From an uncultured Acetatifactor sp. (lineage in GTDB: Bacteria > Bacillota > Clostridia > Lachnospirales > Lachnospiraceae), in NCBI GenBank assembly GCA_947627535.1, contig CANQWM010000011.1:1-64000 (forward strand): DNA of 64,000 nt, given 5' to 3'. The position numbers were made by a program, and so were the translations under genes. The first letter of the stretch is position 1; every line of letters begins with the position of its first letter. Shown here in pieces: positions 10,796 to 51,439 of the stretch. The notes under the pieces were generated by a model. The model did no database searches and was not told the origin of the DNA. It saw only the letters and a program-made list of their open reading frames with translations.

Positions 10796-10866
10796 GCGGG
10801 TGTAGTTCAATGGTAGAACACCAGCCTTCCAAGCTGGACACGTGGGTTCGATTCCCATCACCCGCT
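10796..10866 (+). tRNA. tRNA-Gly (TCC)
   Basis: 71-nt cloverleaf. Acceptor GCGGGTG pairs with CACCCGC, discriminator T. The anticodon stem CCAGC/GCTGG encloses CTTCCAA with anticodon TCC. Its last 21 bases before the discriminator (10845-10865) recur exactly at 12863-12883, so this gene marks the left edge of a duplicated or inserted segment. Confidence 0.97.
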
Positions 10867-10938
10867 TTTTGTGTGCGCAGCACACAGGTCTGCGCAGCAG
10901 ACACCGGCGAAGCCGGAAAGCGGGGGATTGCACCCTGC
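10866..10938 (+). repeat. tRNA-Gly trailer repeat, single copy (73-bp unit)
   Basis: One copy of the 73-bp unit found three times at 12884-13102. Within it are three short hairpins, GTGTG/CACAC, GTCTG/CAGAC and CCGG/CCGG (GAAG-containing loop), then a GC stem (GCGGGG with CCCTGC, one G-T pair) followed by a T run. It may act as the tRNA transcript's trailer and terminator. Confidence 0.7.
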
Positions 10939-10948
10939 TTTTTATATG

Positions 10949-10990
10949 CTCAGAAAGCCTTATTTTATGGGACTTCTGAGTATTTTTATT
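10949..10990 (+). terminator. Hairpin with T-rich tail after tRNA-Gly trailer
   Basis: CTCAGAAAGCC and GGACTTCTGAG form an 11-bp stem with two internal mismatches, followed by TATTTTTATTTT. The same element is repeated after the 73-bp array near 13110-13150. Confidence 0.45.
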
Positions 10991-11103: not shown

Positions 11104-11131
11104 TTGACAGCAATCCGGGGGGGCGTATACT
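11104..11131 (+). promoter_or_regulatory. Lipoprotein promoter 1 with G7 spacer tract
   Basis: TTGACA at 11104-11109, TATACT at 11126-11131, spacer 16 bp containing seven consecutive G at 11117-11123. It is near-identical to promoters 2 and 3 but differs from promoter 3 in G number. Homopolymer slippage here would change the -35/-10 spacing. Confidence 0.75.
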
Positions 11132-11240
11132 GAAGGCACGACGAGGCAGAAAGAGCTGTGTCTAATCATCAGGATTGCATCTGCAAACTGCCTGCCGCAG
11201 ACTTGTTTTGTGCAGAGAACAGCACGGAAAGGGAGGAAAT

Positions 11241-12581
11241 ATGAAAAAGAGGATATTGACGGTACTATTATCAGCGGCGTTTGTTGTATCGGCGCTTTGC
11301 GGCTGTGAAGAAAGCCGGGAGACAGGGGGCCGCGCAAGGACAAAGGAAGAACAGAGAGAGGAAAGTACGCGGGAGGACTCAAGGGAAAATTTGGAAGATA
11401 GCGGGGAGACTTCCTCTGGGGAGAGCGGTCAGGATAGCGAAAAAGGCAAAGGCGGCTCCTTTCTGGAGGGACTGTTTGGAGAATCGAAGTCGGAGAAAGT
11501 ATGGGTTTGTACGAAAATAACGAAAATGAGTTATAAATCGGACGGCAGCGAATACGTAGAGGGATGGATCGAGCGCGAATATGACGATTCCGGGAGCCTG
11601 ATAAAGGAGACGACGGGGTATAACGATGACGGTATATATGACGTATATCAATGGTACGAATATGAATATGACGACGCCGGGAACATGACCAAAATAACAG
11701 GGGGATATGGCTCGGACGGCAGCATAGATGGGTGGAACGAATATGTATATGACGCCGCCGGAAACCAGACAAAGGAGATTCATTATGACTCGGACGGCGA
11801 TGTACTTGCACGGGAAGAACGTGAATATGACAGTTCCGGAAACCTGACGAAGAAAGCTCAGTATTATAATTCAGACGGCAGTGTATGGAGCTGGATGGAA
11901 TATGAAAATGACGGTTTCGGTAACCTGACGAAAGGTACAGCATATTACTCTGACGGCAGCGTAAGGGGGTGGCTGGAATTTGAATATGACGACTCCGGGA
12001 ATCTTACAAAGTGGGCAAAGTATAACTCTGACGGCAGCGAAGCATATTGTCACGAATATGACTCCGGAAACCAGAGGAAGGTGACATGGTATGCTCCGGG
12101 AGGCACCGTAAAAGACTGCTACGAATATGACAACTCCGGAAACCAGACAAAAGAGATACATTATGACTCGGACGGCAGCATAAGCGATCGGATCGAATAT
12201 GAATATGACGGTTTCGGTAACCTGACGAAAGGTACAGAATATGACTCGGACGGCAGCGTATGGAGGGAATTTGAATATGACGCTGCCAGTAACCTGACAA
12301 AACAGATAGTTTATAGCTCTGACGGCAGCGTATGGGGGTGGCTGGAATTTGAATATGACGCTGCCAGTAACCTGACAAAACAGATAGTTTATAGCTCGGA
12401 CGGCAGTATAGTTTGGTGGCTTAGTCATTCATGGGAATATGATGACTCCGGAAATATGACGAAGGAGACGACGTATAACTCTGACGGCAGCGTAGATAGT
12501 TGGACCGAATATGAATATAAGCTCATCCCTGTAAACGAAAAGTCCGCACAGCCCGCTATAGTAGAGGTGGCGGGGCGTTAG
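11241..12581 (+). CDS. YD-repeat lipoprotein 1
   Basis: 446 residues from the ATG at 11241 (GGGAGGAAAT upstream). A lipoprotein signal (MKKRILTVLLSAAFVVSALC, then GC) and an acidic Glu/Arg/Ser-rich stalk lead into about 12 repeats of roughly 20-26 residues with consensus EYDxSGNxTKExxYxSDGSV, similar to YD repeats of RHS and wall-associated proteins. There is no RHS core or toxin domain. Two adjacent repeats (starting near 12267 and 12345) are nearly identical over a 78-bp period, suggesting recent tandem duplication. The product is probably displayed on the cell surface. It is first of three modules sharing promoter, leader and signal peptide. Confidence 0.85.
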   Translation: MKKRILTVLLSAAFVVSALCGCEESRETGGRARTKEEQREESTREDSRENLEDSGETSSGESGQDSEKGKGGSFLEGLFGESKSEKVWVCTKITKMSYKSDGSEYVEGWIEREYDDSGSLIKETTGYNDDGIYDVYQWYEYEYDDAGNMTKITGGYGSDGSIDGWNEYVYDAAGNQTKEIHYDSDGDVLAREEREYDSSGNLTKKAQYYNSDGSVWSWMEYENDGFGNLTKGTAYYSDGSVRGWLEFEYDDSGNLTKWAKYNSDGSEAYCHEYDSGNQRKVTWYAPGGTVKDCYEYDNSGNQTKEIHYDSDGSISDRIEYEYDGFGNLTKGTEYDSDGSVWREFEYDAASNLTKQIVYSSDGSVWGWLEFEYDAASNLTKQIVYSSDGSIVWWLSHSWEYDDSGNMTKETTYNSDGSVDSWTEYEYKLIPVNEKSAQPAIVEVAGR

Positions 12582-12622
12582 GAGCCAGTCAGAATAAAGT
12601 AACTGTTTATATTCTATTTCCA

Positions 12623-12720
12623 TGCAGTGACGCTGCATCAGGGAAAGACTGTGAGTGAAAGCGCGACGATAAGTCGGAGGATTTTGTAGAATATCTGGTG
12701 GATGATAAAGACAATTAATA
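12623..12720 (+). pseudogene. Degraded copy of the small ORF found at 16737
   Basis: The stretch from CCATGCAGTGACGCTGCATC onward is closely similar to 16837-16930, but small deletions break the frame (AGCGCGACG against AGCGACGACG, and a lost base in AGTCGGAGG). It shows that lipoprotein module 1 once ended in the same small gene as module 3. Confidence 0.65.
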
Positions 12721-12862
12721 ATTACTAAAAAAATAAAATCTATATAGAATTGCATGAAATGAAATTTGTTGACTTCCATACGTCTTTGGTTACAGTTTTG
12801 GTTACATAAAATATGGAAGATGTGAAAAGTGCCTTTCTACCTGACATTTTGAAAAATTTCTA

Positions 12863-12883
12863 GGTTCGATTCCCATCACCCGC
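12863..12883 (+). repeat. Duplicated 3-prime end of tRNA-Gly
   Basis: These 21 bases equal positions 10845-10865 (T-arm and 3-prime acceptor strand of tRNA-Gly), while the preceding sequence is unrelated. Together they bound a segment of 2018 bp as direct repeats, the pattern left by tRNA-targeted integration or by unequal recombination. No integrase is encoded inside. Confidence 0.8.
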
Positions 12884-13102
12884 TTTTTGTGTGCGCAGCA
12901 CACAGGTCTGCGCAGCAGACACCGGCGAAGCCGGAAAGCGGGGGATTGCACCCTGCTTTTTGTGTGCGCAGCACACAGGTCTGCGCAGCAGACACCGGCG
13001 AAGCCGGAAAGCGGGGGATTGCACCCTGCTTTTTGTGTGCGCAGCACACAGGTCTGCGCAGCAGACACCGGCAAAGCCGGAAAGCGGGGGATTGCACCCT
13101 GC
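12884..13102 (+). repeat. Three tandem 73-bp multi-hairpin repeats
   Basis: Exact or near-exact copies begin at 12884, 12957 and 13030; the third differs by one base (GGCAAAGCC for GGCGAAGCC) and near its end. Each holds three short stem-loops followed by a terminator-like stem and T run. The same unit follows the real tRNA-Gly once. As 73 is not a multiple of three, open frames across it are artefacts. Confidence 0.85.
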
Positions 13103-13268
13103 TCTTTATATGCTCAGAAAGCCTGATTTTATGGGACTTCTGAGTATTTTTATTTTCGGCGGTTTCTGGTTACATCTGGTTGCACTTTTTATCCGCTTAA
13201 GACAGTTTTCATCTTTCGGTAAATCATGGGAAACGAAAACAATAAATCCCAGCAAAAACGTAAAACAG

Positions 13269-13296
13269 TTGACAGCAATCCGGGGGGGCGTATACT
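13269..13296 (+). promoter_or_regulatory. Lipoprotein promoter 2 with G7 spacer tract
   Basis: TTGACA at 13269-13274 and TATACT at 13291-13296 are 16 bp apart; the spacer contains seven G at 13282-13288. The flanking 200 or so bases match promoter 1 closely. Confidence 0.75.
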
Positions 13297-13402
13297 TAAG
13301 GCACGGCGAGGCAGAAAGGGCTGTGTCTAATCATCAGGATTGCATCTGCAAACTGCCTGCCGCAGACTTGTTGTGCGCAGAGCACGCGAAAGGGGAAGAA
13401 AT

Positions 13403-14623
13403 ATGAAAAAGAGAATATTGACGTTATTATTGTCAGCGGCGCTTGTCGTATCGACACTTTGCGGCTGTGGAGAAAGCAGGGAGACAGGGGGTAGCGCGAG
13501 GACCAAAAAAGAACAGGAAAAGGAAAGCACGCAGGAGAACTCGAAGAAAGATTTGGAAGAAAGCAGGGAGACTTCCTCGGAAGAAGGTGGGGAAACTTCT
13601 CTGGAAGAAAACAGAGAAACACCCTCGGAAGAAAATGGAGAAATTTCTTCTGAGGAAAGCGATGATCTGCTTACTGGTGCATTGGGTGGTGGTGAAGATT
13701 CGATAGAACTGTCTGTTAATGTTACCGATCCCAATTTTGAGGAGGGGTGGCTGGAGTACAAGAAACTACAAGATATCGACTGGGGAGAGGTGTGGTTAAA
13801 CGATGATAACTATGTTAAGTCCTATATTGCAGAAGATGGTACAGAATATATGTATGACTTAGATGGGTCGTTTATTAGTAACGCAATAGTTCAGGGTAAA
13901 CCTAGTGGAGGGGTAGAAGGGGTATACTATTCTGTATATGATTTTACAAATGAGTCAGGAGAAGTAGATTATGAGCGTATAAATGCAAGGAATTTCGTGG
14001 CAGCTGTAAATGTAGGTTCTGTTCCTGTTGATTGTTTGGACGAGGAATCTTATGAGAATTATAAAAACCTTAAGAGTGAATTTCGTAACGAGAAGGCTTT
14101 AGGTAAGTCAGACACAACTACAGTTGTCTATAATACTGGCGAGTATTGTGAATTCCTATATCAAAATATACGTAATTCTAATATAAGTAATCTGTTGACA
14201 GAGTGGGCTATTCAAAATAAGGTGTATAATTTTAAGGAAATTTTTGTCAGCACATTCAGTCAAGTATTAAGTGAAGGTCAGCTTGAAGATTATAACCCTA
14301 GTGTAGTATATGCGCTTGTATGGAGCTATATTTCAGATGGTAGACAGAATTGTGAAGTACGGTCAGTTGATTCGGTAAACATTCAAGATTTTTACTCCAC
14401 AGAGTTTCTTTCTATTTGCCTACCTGTATACTCTGAAGAAGAACTGATCTATAATATTTGTCATTACACAATTGACTTTGAGAATGGCATTGGGTACTAC
14501 GAGTTTATAAATGCTGAACAGAGGGATACCGTGGAACAAAGGTATAGGCAAGATAGGGAATTGACGAACTTAGGTCTAACAGATGATATACCTATCTTTA
14601 AGGAAGGCGTATTGACAGAATGA
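13403..14623 (+). CDS. Lipoprotein 2, shared leader with a different C-terminal domain
   Basis: 406 residues from the ATG at 13403 (AGGGGAAGAAAT upstream). The first 45 or so residues, with signal peptide and Cys in TLCGC, match lipoproteins 1 and 3. An acidic stalk of short repeats (SSEEGGET, PSEENGEI) runs to about residue 95. From there the protein has no YD repeats: it becomes a unique domain with EGWLEYKKLQDIDWGEVW and many Asn, Tyr and Ile. This part is clearly more AT-rich than the neighbouring genes, which suggests acquisition from elsewhere. I do not recognise the domain. Its stop overlaps a 43-codon frame. Confidence 0.8.
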   Translation: MKKRILTLLLSAALVVSTLCGCGESRETGGSARTKKEQEKESTQENSKKDLEESRETSSEEGGETSLEENRETPSEENGEISSEESDDLLTGALGGGEDSIELSVNVTDPNFEEGWLEYKKLQDIDWGEVWLNDDNYVKSYIAEDGTEYMYDLDGSFISNAIVQGKPSGGVEGVYYSVYDFTNESGEVDYERINARNFVAAVNVGSVPVDCLDEESYENYKNLKSEFRNEKALGKSDTTTVVYNTGEYCEFLYQNIRNSNISNLLTEWAIQNKVYNFKEIFVSTFSQVLSEGQLEDYNPSVVYALVWSYISDGRQNCEVRSVDSVNIQDFYSTEFLSICLPVYSEEELIYNICHYTIDFENGIGYYEFINAEQRDTVEQRYRQDRELTNLGLTDDIPIFKEGVLTE

Positions 14624-14751
14624 AACGCAAACTCACAATAACAATGCTTTCAATTACGCTAATCTTAATAATACTTGCCCTAAAATCTCTCGGCTCTTTC
14701 CTCGTCGAACGTTCCTATTCCTCAAAGGATATCGTGTACGATATCCTTTGA
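14620..14751 (+). CDS. Possible 43-residue membrane peptide
   Basis: An ATG overlaps the lipoprotein 2 stop (ATGA), so it could be translated by coupling. The product begins MKRKLTITMLSITLILIILA, one membrane helix, and ends SYSSKDIVYDIL. The last part matches a frame after lipoprotein 3 (SYSAKDIVYNDAIS), so this is either a short gene or the start of a longer one cut by a deletion. No independent ribosome binding site is seen. Confidence 0.35.
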   Translation: MKRKLTITMLSITLILIILALKSLGSFLVERSYSSKDIVYDIL

Positions 14752-14753
14752 GG
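14720..14753. repeat. Perfect 34-bp palindrome after lipoprotein 2
   Basis: CCTCAAAGGATATCGT and its exact complement flank a 2-bp centre (GT). It is followed by GAGAGGGAGACTTCAGCG. A related imperfect palindrome with the same flank follows lipoprotein 3 at 16649-16692. No T run follows, so it does not look like a standard terminator. Confidence 0.8.
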
Positions 14754-14965
14754 AGAGGGAGACTTCAGCGTTGCTTTAACCTTTACCATAAGCGAAATTT
14801 TGATGTCTTTTATTTTTTCTGGCCTGCCGGATATTGATTATCGTGACGATAATGCTGATGACAGTCGCTACAATACCGACAAATTTTAGCTGTTAAGGGA
14901 AGTTTTCATCTTTCGATAAATCATGGGAAACGAAAACAATAAATCCCAGCAAAAACGTAAAACAG
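14752..14965. other. Inter-module spacer
   Basis: AT-rich DNA with no convincing gene. Its right part (from about 14886) is the start of the shared upstream region of the lipoprotein modules, with TTTTCATCTTTCGATAAATC, similar to 11035-11060 and 13205-13230. Confidence 0.5.
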
Positions 14966-14992
14966 TTGACAGCAATCCGGGGGGCGTATACT
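14966..14992 (+). promoter_or_regulatory. Lipoprotein promoter 3 with G6 spacer tract
   Basis: TTGACA at 14966-14971 and TATACT at 14987-14992 are only 15 bp apart because the spacer has six G (14979-14984) instead of seven. Otherwise it matches promoters 1 and 2. Confidence 0.75.
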
Positions 14993-15100: not shown

Positions 15101-16594
15101 ATGAAAAAGAGGATATTGACGGTACTATTATCAGCGGCGATTGCTGTATCGGCGCTTTGCGGCTGTGAAGAAAGCCGGGAGACCGGGGGCCGCGCAAGGA
15201 CAAAGGAAGAACAGAGAGAGGAAAGTACGCGGGAGGACTCAAGGAAAAATTCGGAAGAAAGCGGGGAGAATTCCTCGGAAGAGAGCGGTCAGGATAGCGG
15301 AGAAGACAAAGGCGGCTCCTTTCTGGAAGGACTGTTTGGAGAATCGAAGTCGGAGAAAGTATGGGTTTGCACGAAGGAGACATATTGTGACAGTGACGGC
15401 AGCGTAGAAACTCAGTATGAACAAGAATATGACGATTCAGGGAGACTGACAAAGGTGACGTATTATGGTGGCGGTATAGAAGATGAATGGAAGGAATATG
15501 AATATGACGACTCAGGAAACATGACGAAGGAGACGCATGGTTACGGCGGCAGCAACAACAGGGAATGGGCGGAATATGAATATGACGGCTCAGAGAAACT
15601 GACGAAGGCAACGAAGTATATAGGGGATGAAGGCGACGGCAGAGTAGATTTCTGGTGCGAATATGGATATGACGGCTCAGGGAACAAGACGAAGGAGACG
15701 GTGTATGACGGAGACGGCAGCGTAAATTATTGCACGGAATATGACACCTCAGGGAATACGACGAAGGAGACATATTATGACAGAGACGGCAGTGTAGCTT
15801 ACTGGAACGAATATGAATATGACATCTCAGGGAACAAGACGAAGGATGCGCAATATGACGGAGACGGCAGCGTAAATTACTTGTATGAATATGAATATGA
15901 CGACTTTGGAAACAAGACGCAGGAGCATCATATTGATAACGGAACGCGAATGGATTATAGAGGGTACGGAATGTATTCTGAAGGGGTCTCCAAAGATGGT
16001 AGCATCGGTGACGAATATTACATATATTGGGAATATGAATATGACGACGCTGGAAATTTGACGAAAGAGATAGAGTATAACTCGGACGGCAGTGTGAGTT
16101 ACCAGCGCGAATATGAGTGTGAATATGACGGCTTCGGGAACATGACGAAAGAGACGGTATATGACGACAGCATAGATAGATGGATAGAATATGTATATGA
16201 ATATGACAGCTCTGGAAATATAATAATGAGGGAGAATTGTAATGACAACATATTAACCGAATATGATGCCTCAGGGAATATAATAAAGGAGATGGATTAT
16301 GACCACGGCATAGTAACCGAATATGATGCCTCAGGGAATATAATAAAGGAGATGGATTATGACCACGGCATAGTAACCGAATATGACACATCAGGGAAAA
16401 AGACAAAGGAGACGTATTATGATGACGACGGTATAGTAGATGATTGGACTGAATATGAATATGACGGTTCCGGAAACATGACGAAGGAGACATATTATCA
16501 CTCTGACGGCAGTGTATATAGTTGGCGCGAATATGAATACAAATTAGTACCTGTAAATGAAATATCCGCCCATTCCATCTTAAATCGATACTGA
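15101..16594 (+). CDS. YD-repeat lipoprotein 3
   Basis: 497 residues from the ATG at 15101 (GGGAGGAAAT upstream). Signal peptide and stalk are almost identical to lipoprotein 1 (ESRETGGRARTKEEQREEST). About 14 YD-type repeats follow, of the form EYDxSGNxTKExYYDxDGSV. Two consecutive repeats are exact 60-bp copies, a sign of recent slippage or unequal crossover. The C-terminus (EYEYKL then PVNE) matches that of lipoprotein 1. It is probably a lipid-anchored surface protein; the ligand is unknown. Confidence 0.85.
   Translation: MKKRILTVLLSAAIAVSALCGCEESRETGGRARTKEEQREESTREDSRKNSEESGENSSEESGQDSGEDKGGSFLEGLFGESKSEKVWVCTKETYCDSDGSVETQYEQEYDDSGRLTKVTYYGGGIEDEWKEYEYDDSGNMTKETHGYGGSNNREWAEYEYDGSEKLTKATKYIGDEGDGRVDFWCEYGYDGSGNKTKETVYDGDGSVNYCTEYDTSGNTTKETYYDRDGSVAYWNEYEYDISGNKTKDAQYDGDGSVNYLYEYEYDDFGNKTQEHHIDNGTRMDYRGYGMYSEGVSKDGSIGDEYYIYWEYEYDDAGNLTKEIEYNSDGSVSYQREYECEYDGFGNMTKETVYDDSIDRWIEYVYEYDSSGNIIMRENCNDNILTEYDASGNIIKEMDYDHGIVTEYDASGNIIKEMDYDHGIVTEYDTSGKKTKETYYDDDGIVDDWTEYEYDGSGNMTKETYYHSDGSVYSWREYEYKLVPVNEISAHSILNRY
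16261..16380 (+). repeat. Exact 60-bp tandem duplication inside lipoprotein 3
   Basis: Positions 16261-16320 and 16321-16380 are identical, coding twice for a 20-residue repeat (YDASGNIIKEMDYDHGIVTE). The frame is kept, so repeat number can change without breaking the gene. Confidence 0.95.
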
Positions 16595-50920: not shown

Positions 50921-50949
50921 TTGACTTTCGCGGGGGGGCAGAGTAAAAT
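50921..50949 (+). promoter_or_regulatory. DUF4234 promoter with G7 spacer tract
   Basis: TTGACT at 50921-50926 and TAAAAT at 50944-50949 are 17 bp apart; the spacer contains seven consecutive G at 50932-50938. The flanks are not similar to the lipoprotein promoters. Confidence 0.7.
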
Positions 50950-51022: not shown

Positions 51023-51439
51023 ATGATAAAGACGAACAGATCGTTAGTGACATACATTGTGTTCACGATTCTGACCTGCGGTATCTATGGATACTATTTC
51101 CTGTACTGCATGGCCCGGGATATGAATATCATGTGTGAAGGAGATGGGGAAAACACACCCGGACTGGCGGTATTCATCATTCTGTCGTTTGTTACCTGCG
51201 GGTTCTATGCGCTGTATTGGTACTATAAGCTGGGGAACCGTCTGGCGTCCAACGCACCCCGGTACGGCCTGAACTTCCAGGAAAACGGAACGACCATTCT
51301 GATGTGGTATGTGGTCGGCGCTCTGGTCTGCGGCATCGGACCCTATGTGGCAATGTATATTCTGATCAAGAACACAAATGCGCTTGCAGCCGCTTACAAT
51401 CAGAGCAAGGGTGCGTATAATAACAACAACGTACAGTAA
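51023..51439 (+). CDS. DUF4234 membrane protein
   Basis: 138 residues from the ATG at 51023 (AGGAGG upstream). Three hydrophobic segments: VTYIVFTILTCGIYGYYFLY, AVFIILSFVTCGFYALYWYY and TILMWYVVGALVCGIGPYVA. The repeated TCGxYxxYW/Y-type motif is characteristic of DUF4234. Function unknown. The C-terminal tail is Asn-rich (YNNNNVQ). It is followed by DUF2752. Confidence 0.88.
   Translation: MIKTNRSLVTYIVFTILTCGIYGYYFLYCMARDMNIMCEGDGENTPGLAVFIILSFVTCGFYALYWYYKLGNRLASNAPRYGLNFQENGTTILMWYVVGALVCGIGPYVAMYILIKNTNALAAAYNQSKGAYNNNNVQ

What the first reader, a model, noticed from the sequence alone, without database searches (positions are those of the whole stretch)
11104..14992. Three paralogous promoters with G tracts of different length in the -35/-10 spacer
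Seen: lipoproteins 1, 2 and 3 share the promoter TTGACA ... TATACT, whose spacer holds 7, 7 and 6 G, giving spacings of 16, 16 and 15 bp. Known: homopolymeric G or C tracts in promoter spacers of surface-protein genes (for example Neisseria porA and opc) change length by slipped-strand mispairing and switch expression. Inference: each gene can independently change level; a gain of one G at copies 1 and 2 would give the optimal 17 bp. Reading by eye I found no other run of seven or more G on this strand apart from the one at 50932.
Basis: partly seen in the sequence, partly recalled or inferred. Interest (0 to 1): 0.75.

Follow-up and report, generated by a model that had tools for sequence, protein, structure and literature searches.

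The report
Poly-G promoter class in gut Lachnospiraceae
Three neighbouring surface-lipoprotein genes of a gut bacterium carry promoters with a short run of G next to the RNA-polymerase contact site; the same design recurs in related bacteria, often in front of cell-envelope genes, where small changes in the run could turn genes up or down.

Summary
They belong to something larger. Sixteen promoters with a G tract in the spacer are listed for this genome; 62 of 138 same-genus genomes match a strict pattern, against 0 matches for the reversed pattern and 10 for a C tract. With one stricter form, at least 18 of 394 genomes of other genera of the family match but only 2 of 393 outside the family. 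The tract usually ends 0 or 2 bases before the -10; the rest of the spacer stays near 9 bp while the tract runs from 6 to 12 G, so spacing follows tract length. Targets lean to exported and membrane proteins. Tract length differs by one G in 5 of 14 ortholog pairs. Best reading: a Lachnospiraceae class of slippage-tunable promoters for envelope genes, probably slow here because tracts are only 6-7 G. Switching itself is not shown.

The parts
11104..11131 (+). Promoter 1: TTGACA, spacer GCAATCC-G7-CG (16 bp), TATACT; G7 at 11117-11123
11241..12581 (+). Lipoprotein 1 (446 aa; signal peptide with lipobox-like LCGC read by eye; RHS_repeat and DUF2963 repeats)
13269..13296 (+). Promoter 2: same, G7 at 13282-13288, 16-bp spacer
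13403..14623 (+). Lipoprotein 2 (406 aa): same leader and signal peptide as 1 and 3, different mature part, no Pfam family above its cut-off
14966..14992 (+). Promoter 3: same, G6 at 14979-14984, 15-bp spacer
15101..16594 (+). Lipoprotein 3 (497 aa; RHS_repeat and DUF2963 repeats)
50921..50949 (+). Another G7-spacer promoter: TTGACT-TTCGC-G7-CAGAG-TAAAAT, 17 bp; the same G7 in relative G086 (C8:2540). The tract is 5 bases from the -10, so it falls outside the tract-at-the--10 form and may be unrelated to the class
51023..51439 (+). DUF4234 protein under that promoter

Best explanation
These are members of a class of housekeeping-sigma promoters concentrated in Lachnospiraceae: a consensus -35 (TTGACA/T), about 9 non-tract spacer bases in all, and a run of G ending 0 or 2 bases before the -10. 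Slipped-strand replication adds or removes single Gs; because the rest of the spacer has constant length, each step changes the -35/-10 distance by 1 bp and so the promoter's strength. The class stands often in front of lipoproteins, secreted, zinc-ribbon membrane and capsule genes, so it would give cell-to-cell variation of the envelope. In this genus the tract is mostly 7 G (16 bp); promoters of other genera more often carry 8-11 G, where slippage should be faster. SHOWN here: the class, its strand and place, its taxonomic concentration, its target bias, lack of spacer compensation, one-G differences between orthologs. INFERRED: slippage within populations, effect on transcription, benefit.
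For: Own genome 12 strict matches; 62 of 138 genus genomes match, reversed pattern 0. Same pattern with a C tract: 10 matches in 10 of 138 genomes, no more than its own reversed pattern, 11. Family 70 of 397 genomes, reversed pattern 8 matches. Stricter form (tract touching the -10, spacer 13-18): at least 18 of 394 genomes of other genera of the family and 2 of 393 phylum genomes outside the family. Distance from tract to -10 in 145 distinct genus sequences: 0 in 92, 1 in 2, 2 in 28, 3-7 in 23. Non-tract spacer is near 9 at each tract length (8.6 at G6, 8.8 at G7, 8.9 at G8, 9.2 at G9), so mean spacer rises 14.6, 15.8, 16.9, 18.2; Spearman between the two is +0.18 (p 0.047) in the genus and -0.04 in other genera, where compensation would give a strong negative value. 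Hits with the tract 3-7 bases from the -10 instead cluster at 17 bp (14 of 23 and 17 of 31), an internal control. Orthologs: tract differs by one in 5 of 14 pairs, non-tract spacer at 11 of 127 positions. Exported by a simple rule: 49 of 100 targets against 9 of 86 background genes. Besides an A-rich stretch before -35 and a C before the tract no strong shared motif.
Against: No reads, strains or expression data were available, so variation within a species is untested. Tracts in the window are only 6-7 G. Lengths in this genus peak sharply at 7 (73 of 122), which says selection for a set length more than free switching; 9 of 14 ortholog pairs keep the same length. The ortholog pairs were found by a pattern requiring both hexamers and GGGG, so the unchanged hexamers (0 of 168) are largely forced and orthologs that lost the tract would be missed. 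Interrupted tracts in G052 keep 16 bp. The promoter at 50921 does not fit the anchored form. The 100 targets contain orthologs and paralogs, and some starts are wrong, so its p-value is too small; 27 of 100 are neither exported nor membrane.
Confidence: 0.55

Rival explanations
1. A fixed promoter element: the C-G7 block next to the -10 is kept for its sequence or shape (bound by a regulator, or a stiff spacer that sets supercoiling response). The genes form a regulon of envelope functions, and length changes are noise.
For: Sharp peak at G7 and 16 bp in this genus; five paralogs of relative G032 keep C-tract-CG while the bases before it change, four at G7 and one at G9; a C precedes the tract in 52 of 62 promoters with flanks and 87 of 122 distinct genus sequences; interrupted tracts in G052 keep 16 bp.
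Against: Tract length runs from 6 to 12 in the genus and 6 to 11 in other genera with no compensation elsewhere in the spacer; no strong shared motif beyond those named; the distance to the -10 is 0 or 2.
Confidence: 0.3
2. Passenger: an ordinary strong promoter with a G run was copied with its lipoprotein leader; the run has no function.
For: The three copies are duplicates (85-93% over 384-560 bp), and a close copy of the promoter stands before an unrelated histidine-phosphatase gene on contig C50.
Against: Cannot explain the same design before unrelated genes in many species and genera, nor the G-over-C strand bias.
Confidence: 0.1
3. Sequencing or assembly error in homopolymers makes the 6/7 difference.
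For: Homopolymers are error-prone on some platforms (PMC5320596, passage); the assembly is in 53 contigs.
Against: Copies 1-3 also differ by substitutions nearby, so they are not confused reads of one copy; one-G differences recur in 5 of 14 ortholog pairs from four assemblies.
Confidence: 0.05

Closest known systems
Neisseria porA, fetA and opc promoter-spacer phase variation
   Same: Homopolymer between -35 and -10 of a surface-protein gene; length sets spacing (passages of PMC2791445 and PMC5320596 seen). Gonococcal porA is listed there with forms such as (T)9C(G)6T and (T)8C(G)8T, that is a C before a G tract.
   Different: There a few single genes with variation between strains reported. 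Here sixteen G-spacer promoters in one genome, mostly anchored at the -10 with G7 modal, in Clostridia; no strain data.
Bifidobacterium breve G-tract slippage
   Same: Gut Gram-positive commensal; one passage states that G tracts also lie within promoter spacers (PMC9187656, passages seen).
   Different: The tracts studied lie between two parts of pilin genes and act by reading frame; another phylum (recalled); no promoter class in the passages seen.
Treponema pallidum tpr poly-G promoters
   Same: Poly-G tract and promoter of a putative surface protein (search listing only, PMC7864442).
   Different: Other phylum and other position of the tract (recalled).

Membership tests
Homopolymeric promoter-spacer phase-variable genes (porA/opc/fetA type) | Homopolymer between -35 and -10 | tested here: met
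   (hexamers by consensus; no start sites mapped)
Homopolymeric promoter-spacer phase-variable genes (porA/opc/fetA type) | Tract length sets the -35/-10 distance (no compensation) | tested here: met
   non-tract spacer near 9 at each tract length
Homopolymeric promoter-spacer phase-variable genes (porA/opc/fetA type) | Tract length varies between strains or inside a population | tested here: inconclusive
   Only between species: 5 of 14 ortholog pairs differ by one G. One genome per species is held, no reads.
Homopolymeric promoter-spacer phase-variable genes (porA/opc/fetA type) | Tract long enough for rapid slippage (about 8 or more) | tested here: inconclusive
   7, 7, 6 in the window; among typed rows with the tract at most 2 bases from the -10, 26 of 134 genus rows and 34 of 51 rows of other genera have 8 or more
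Homopolymeric promoter-spacer phase-variable genes (porA/opc/fetA type) | Target is a surface protein | tested here: met
   Signal peptide with lipobox-like LCGC in all three, read by eye; the rule classes them as secreted/anchored, not lipoprotein. Class-wide bias. Surface location itself not tested.
Homopolymeric promoter-spacer phase-variable genes (porA/opc/fetA type) | Expression changes with tract length | not testable with these tools
   Needs reporters or RNA data
Regulator-bound operator in the spacer | Conserved motif beyond the homopolymer | tested here: inconclusive
   62 related promoters: only an A-rich stretch before -35 and a C before the tract stand out; no dyad search was run

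The most novel reading that the evidence does not exclude
A bacterial family uses one reusable promoter design, a -10-anchored poly-G spacer, as a bet-hedging system for its envelope: in this genus up to a dozen or more independent tuners per genome, with each lineage holding the tract at its own length (7 here, about 9 elsewhere) and so setting its own switching rate.
Probability: 0.4. Interest if true: 0.8.

Novelty: new variant of a known kind. Interest (0 to 1): 0.62.

Why it matters
Phase variation by promoter-spacer homopolymers is known to me mostly from single genes of Gram-negative pathogens (recalled). A class with many copies in gut commensals, spread over a family and leaning to lipoproteins, capsule and wall proteins, could explain some strain-level surface variation of Lachnospiraceae and could be read from metagenomes by counting Gs. 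Eight paper searches aimed at it listed no paper whose title or abstract start describes it; several listings were capped (for example 15 of 1,310), and the library holds open-licence papers only.

Tried and rejected
Ideas set aside: (1) 17 bp as the class optimum: not borne out for this genus. (2) G7 as a rare motif in itself: simulated order-2 to order-4 sequences expect 3.9-4.6 runs of G or C >=7 per 64 kb and 3 are seen (order 1 expects 14.2), so only their place is remarkable. (3) Palindromic sites such as TTGACAAATACCCTATGGGGGTATATT also match the loose pattern; they look like a metal-responsive operator (recalled) and were left out of the family rows, though one (G073) stayed in the genus rows. 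(4) Phage origin: no DNA match in phages to the leader; 0 viral contigs with the C-G7 form touching the -10; 5 hits of the leader pattern without a G tract and 4 hits of a G8 form. (5) The exact leader pattern in genome contigs gave 20 loci, of which only L033 has the G tract and the lipoprotein.

Limits of the counts: the listing is cut, so one search used 158 typed genus rows (146 and 12 own rows) and lacks G135, G099, G094, G012, G015, G037, G067, G081, G026, G034, G136 and part of G096. From I dropped rows that repeat one site with another end (G036, G086:C23) and two with an odd -10 end (G069:C4, G086:C25:33882); the palindromic rows (G352, G448 twice, G498), one repeat (G387), an alternate end (G442) and the genus rows (G000, G098). 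Ortholog pairs were chosen by me by protein and flank similarity; pair G000_0/G086_16 has an unrelated upstream flank and may be a paralog. The background is 86 genes from the window and 11 loci, not a random genome sample. The phylum pattern allows spacers of 13-18 bp only and differs from that; applies it to the typed rows for a like-for-like figure.
Full report
WHAT IS THERE. The window (64 kb, contig 11 of a 2.85-Mb genome in 53 contigs) belongs to a genus whose member G086 carries a contig of the same length and match position as L033, an 'uncultured Acetatifactor sp.' record; Acetatifactor is in Lachnospiraceae. Three genes for lipoproteins (11241-12581, 13403-14623, 15101-16594; lipobox-like LCGC read by eye) start 106-109 bp downstream of TTGACA-GCAATCC-G(7,7,6)-CG-TATACT. 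Genes 1 and 3 encode RHS/DUF2963 repeat proteins; gene 2 shares promoter, leader and signal peptide but has a different mature part.

BEYOND THE THREE COPIES. The only other G>=7 run of the window, at 50932, also lies in a promoter-like spacer (TTGACT...TAAAAT, 17 bp) before a DUF4234 gene, but 5 bases from the -10, so it is not in the anchored form described below. A loose scan of the own genome gives 25 matches against 6 for the reversed pattern; I took 16 of the 25 as promoters by their -35 and -10. Of 48 G>=7 tracts in the genome (49 places, two of them one G8), 12 lie in such spacers (11, leaving out one flagged inside an open frame, plus C29:25365, whose context duplicates C8:82608); another, at C15:33061, resembles its neighbours but lacks their -35.

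A LINEAGE CLASS. The pattern TTGACW-N3-10-G6-N0-7-TAWANT matches 62 of 138 genus genomes, with 0 matches for the reversed pattern. The same pattern with C6 gives 10 matches in 10 of 138 genomes and its reversed form 11. In the family 70 of 397 genomes match, with 8 reversed matches. With a stricter form, tract touching the -10 and spacer 13-18, 3 of 398 phylum genomes match: this one and 2 of 393 outside the family; the same form is met by typed rows of at least 29 genus genomes and 18 of 394 genomes of other genera of the family. The tract is anchored: 0 or 2 bases before the -10 in 120 of 145 distinct genus sequences and 46 of 82 from other genera.

LENGTH BEHAVIOUR. Among 122 genus sequences with the tract at most 2 bases from the -10, lengths are G6 23, G7 73, G8 11, G9 12, G10, G11 and G12 one each. 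In 51 from other genera: G6 10, G7 7, G8 8, G9 14, G10 8, G11 4. Non-tract spacer length does not fall as the tract grows, so spacings run from about 14 to 21 bp, with a few shorter hits. Hits with the tract elsewhere in the spacer cluster at the usual 17 bp. This is what slippage without compensation would leave, while the G7 peak shows a preferred length in this genus. Between close species, tract length differs by one in 5 of 14 ortholog pairs and the non-tract spacer at 11 of 127 positions; the hexamers do not differ (0 of 168), which the search pattern largely forces. Paralogs: 7, 7, 6 here; 7, 7, 7, 7, 9 in G032; 7 and 9 in G214. Against a pure slippage view: three interrupted tracts in G052 keep 16 bp, and the copies in the window also differ by one A in an A4/A5 run.

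TARGETS. Downstream genes include lipoproteins, a LysM protein and other secreted proteins, LRR and zinc-ribbon membrane proteins, a lipoprotein with a below-cut-off match to solute-binding proteins, a Band-7 protein, CpsB/CapC, a GH88 hydrolase and a histidine phosphatase. Another RHS/DUF2963 protein, in G049, has a G9 promoter. By a simple rule 49 of 100 targets are exported against 9 of 86 background genes, and 73 of 100 against 23 of 86 when membrane proteins are added. The 100 are not independent, so only the direction counts.

MECHANISM. Apart from -35, -10, an A-rich stretch before -35 and a C before the tract no strong shared motif is seen, which favours spacing over a bound regulator without excluding one. 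I take slippage-tuned promoter strength as the most likely function (0.55), a fixed element as the main rival (0.3). Neither switching nor an effect on expression has been shown.

KNOWN KIND. It would work like the porA/fetA/opc promoters of Neisseria, where the homopolymer lies between -10 and -35 (passages of PMC2791445 and PMC5320596); B. breve is said to have G tracts in promoter spacers too (passage of PMC9187656). It is not filed as a member, because variation within a species and effect on expression could not be tested. Eight paper searches aimed at the class in Lachnospiraceae or gut Clostridia listed nothing on it (open-licence library, capped listings); two more were for comparators.

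Noticed in passing
10845-10953 and 12863-12971: A 97% identical direct repeat starts inside the 3' end of tRNA-Gly (10796-10866) and brackets lipoprotein gene 1, like a duplication or insertion at a tRNA 3' end.
   Followed up: partly
10859-10953, 12877-13117: A roughly 72-bp G+C-rich unit downstream of tRNA-Gly occurs once there and three times in tandem before promoter 2.
   Followed up: no
13403-14623: Lipoprotein 2 joins the shared promoter, leader and signal peptide to a different mature domain: a leader cassette reused for different proteins.
   Followed up: partly
L162 (own contig C15:29000-34000): Three related genes in a row with G7, G6 and G7 tracts; the third lacks the -35 hexamer of the others.
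   Followed up: partly
L006:114, L007:4189 and 4666 (-), L008:6938: A repeated promoter TTGACAATTTCGCC...TATACT followed by GGAACAACCGCCCACAAGGTGGGTTGACC, on small contigs; at L006 it seems to face a short hydrophobic ORF, looking like a type I toxin-antitoxin unit (read by eye, recalled resemblance).
   Followed up: no
own contig C40:3387-3413 and relatives: TTGACAAATACCCTATGGGGGTATATT, a palindromic operator-like promoter seen also in G084 and G086, probably metal-responsive (recalled).
   Followed up: no
L263:2872, L264:13531 (-): Two viral contigs share TTGACAAACA-G12-TAAAAT, in L263 27 bp before a 172-aa frame: a long G tract in a promoter-like site of a viral contig.
   Followed up: no
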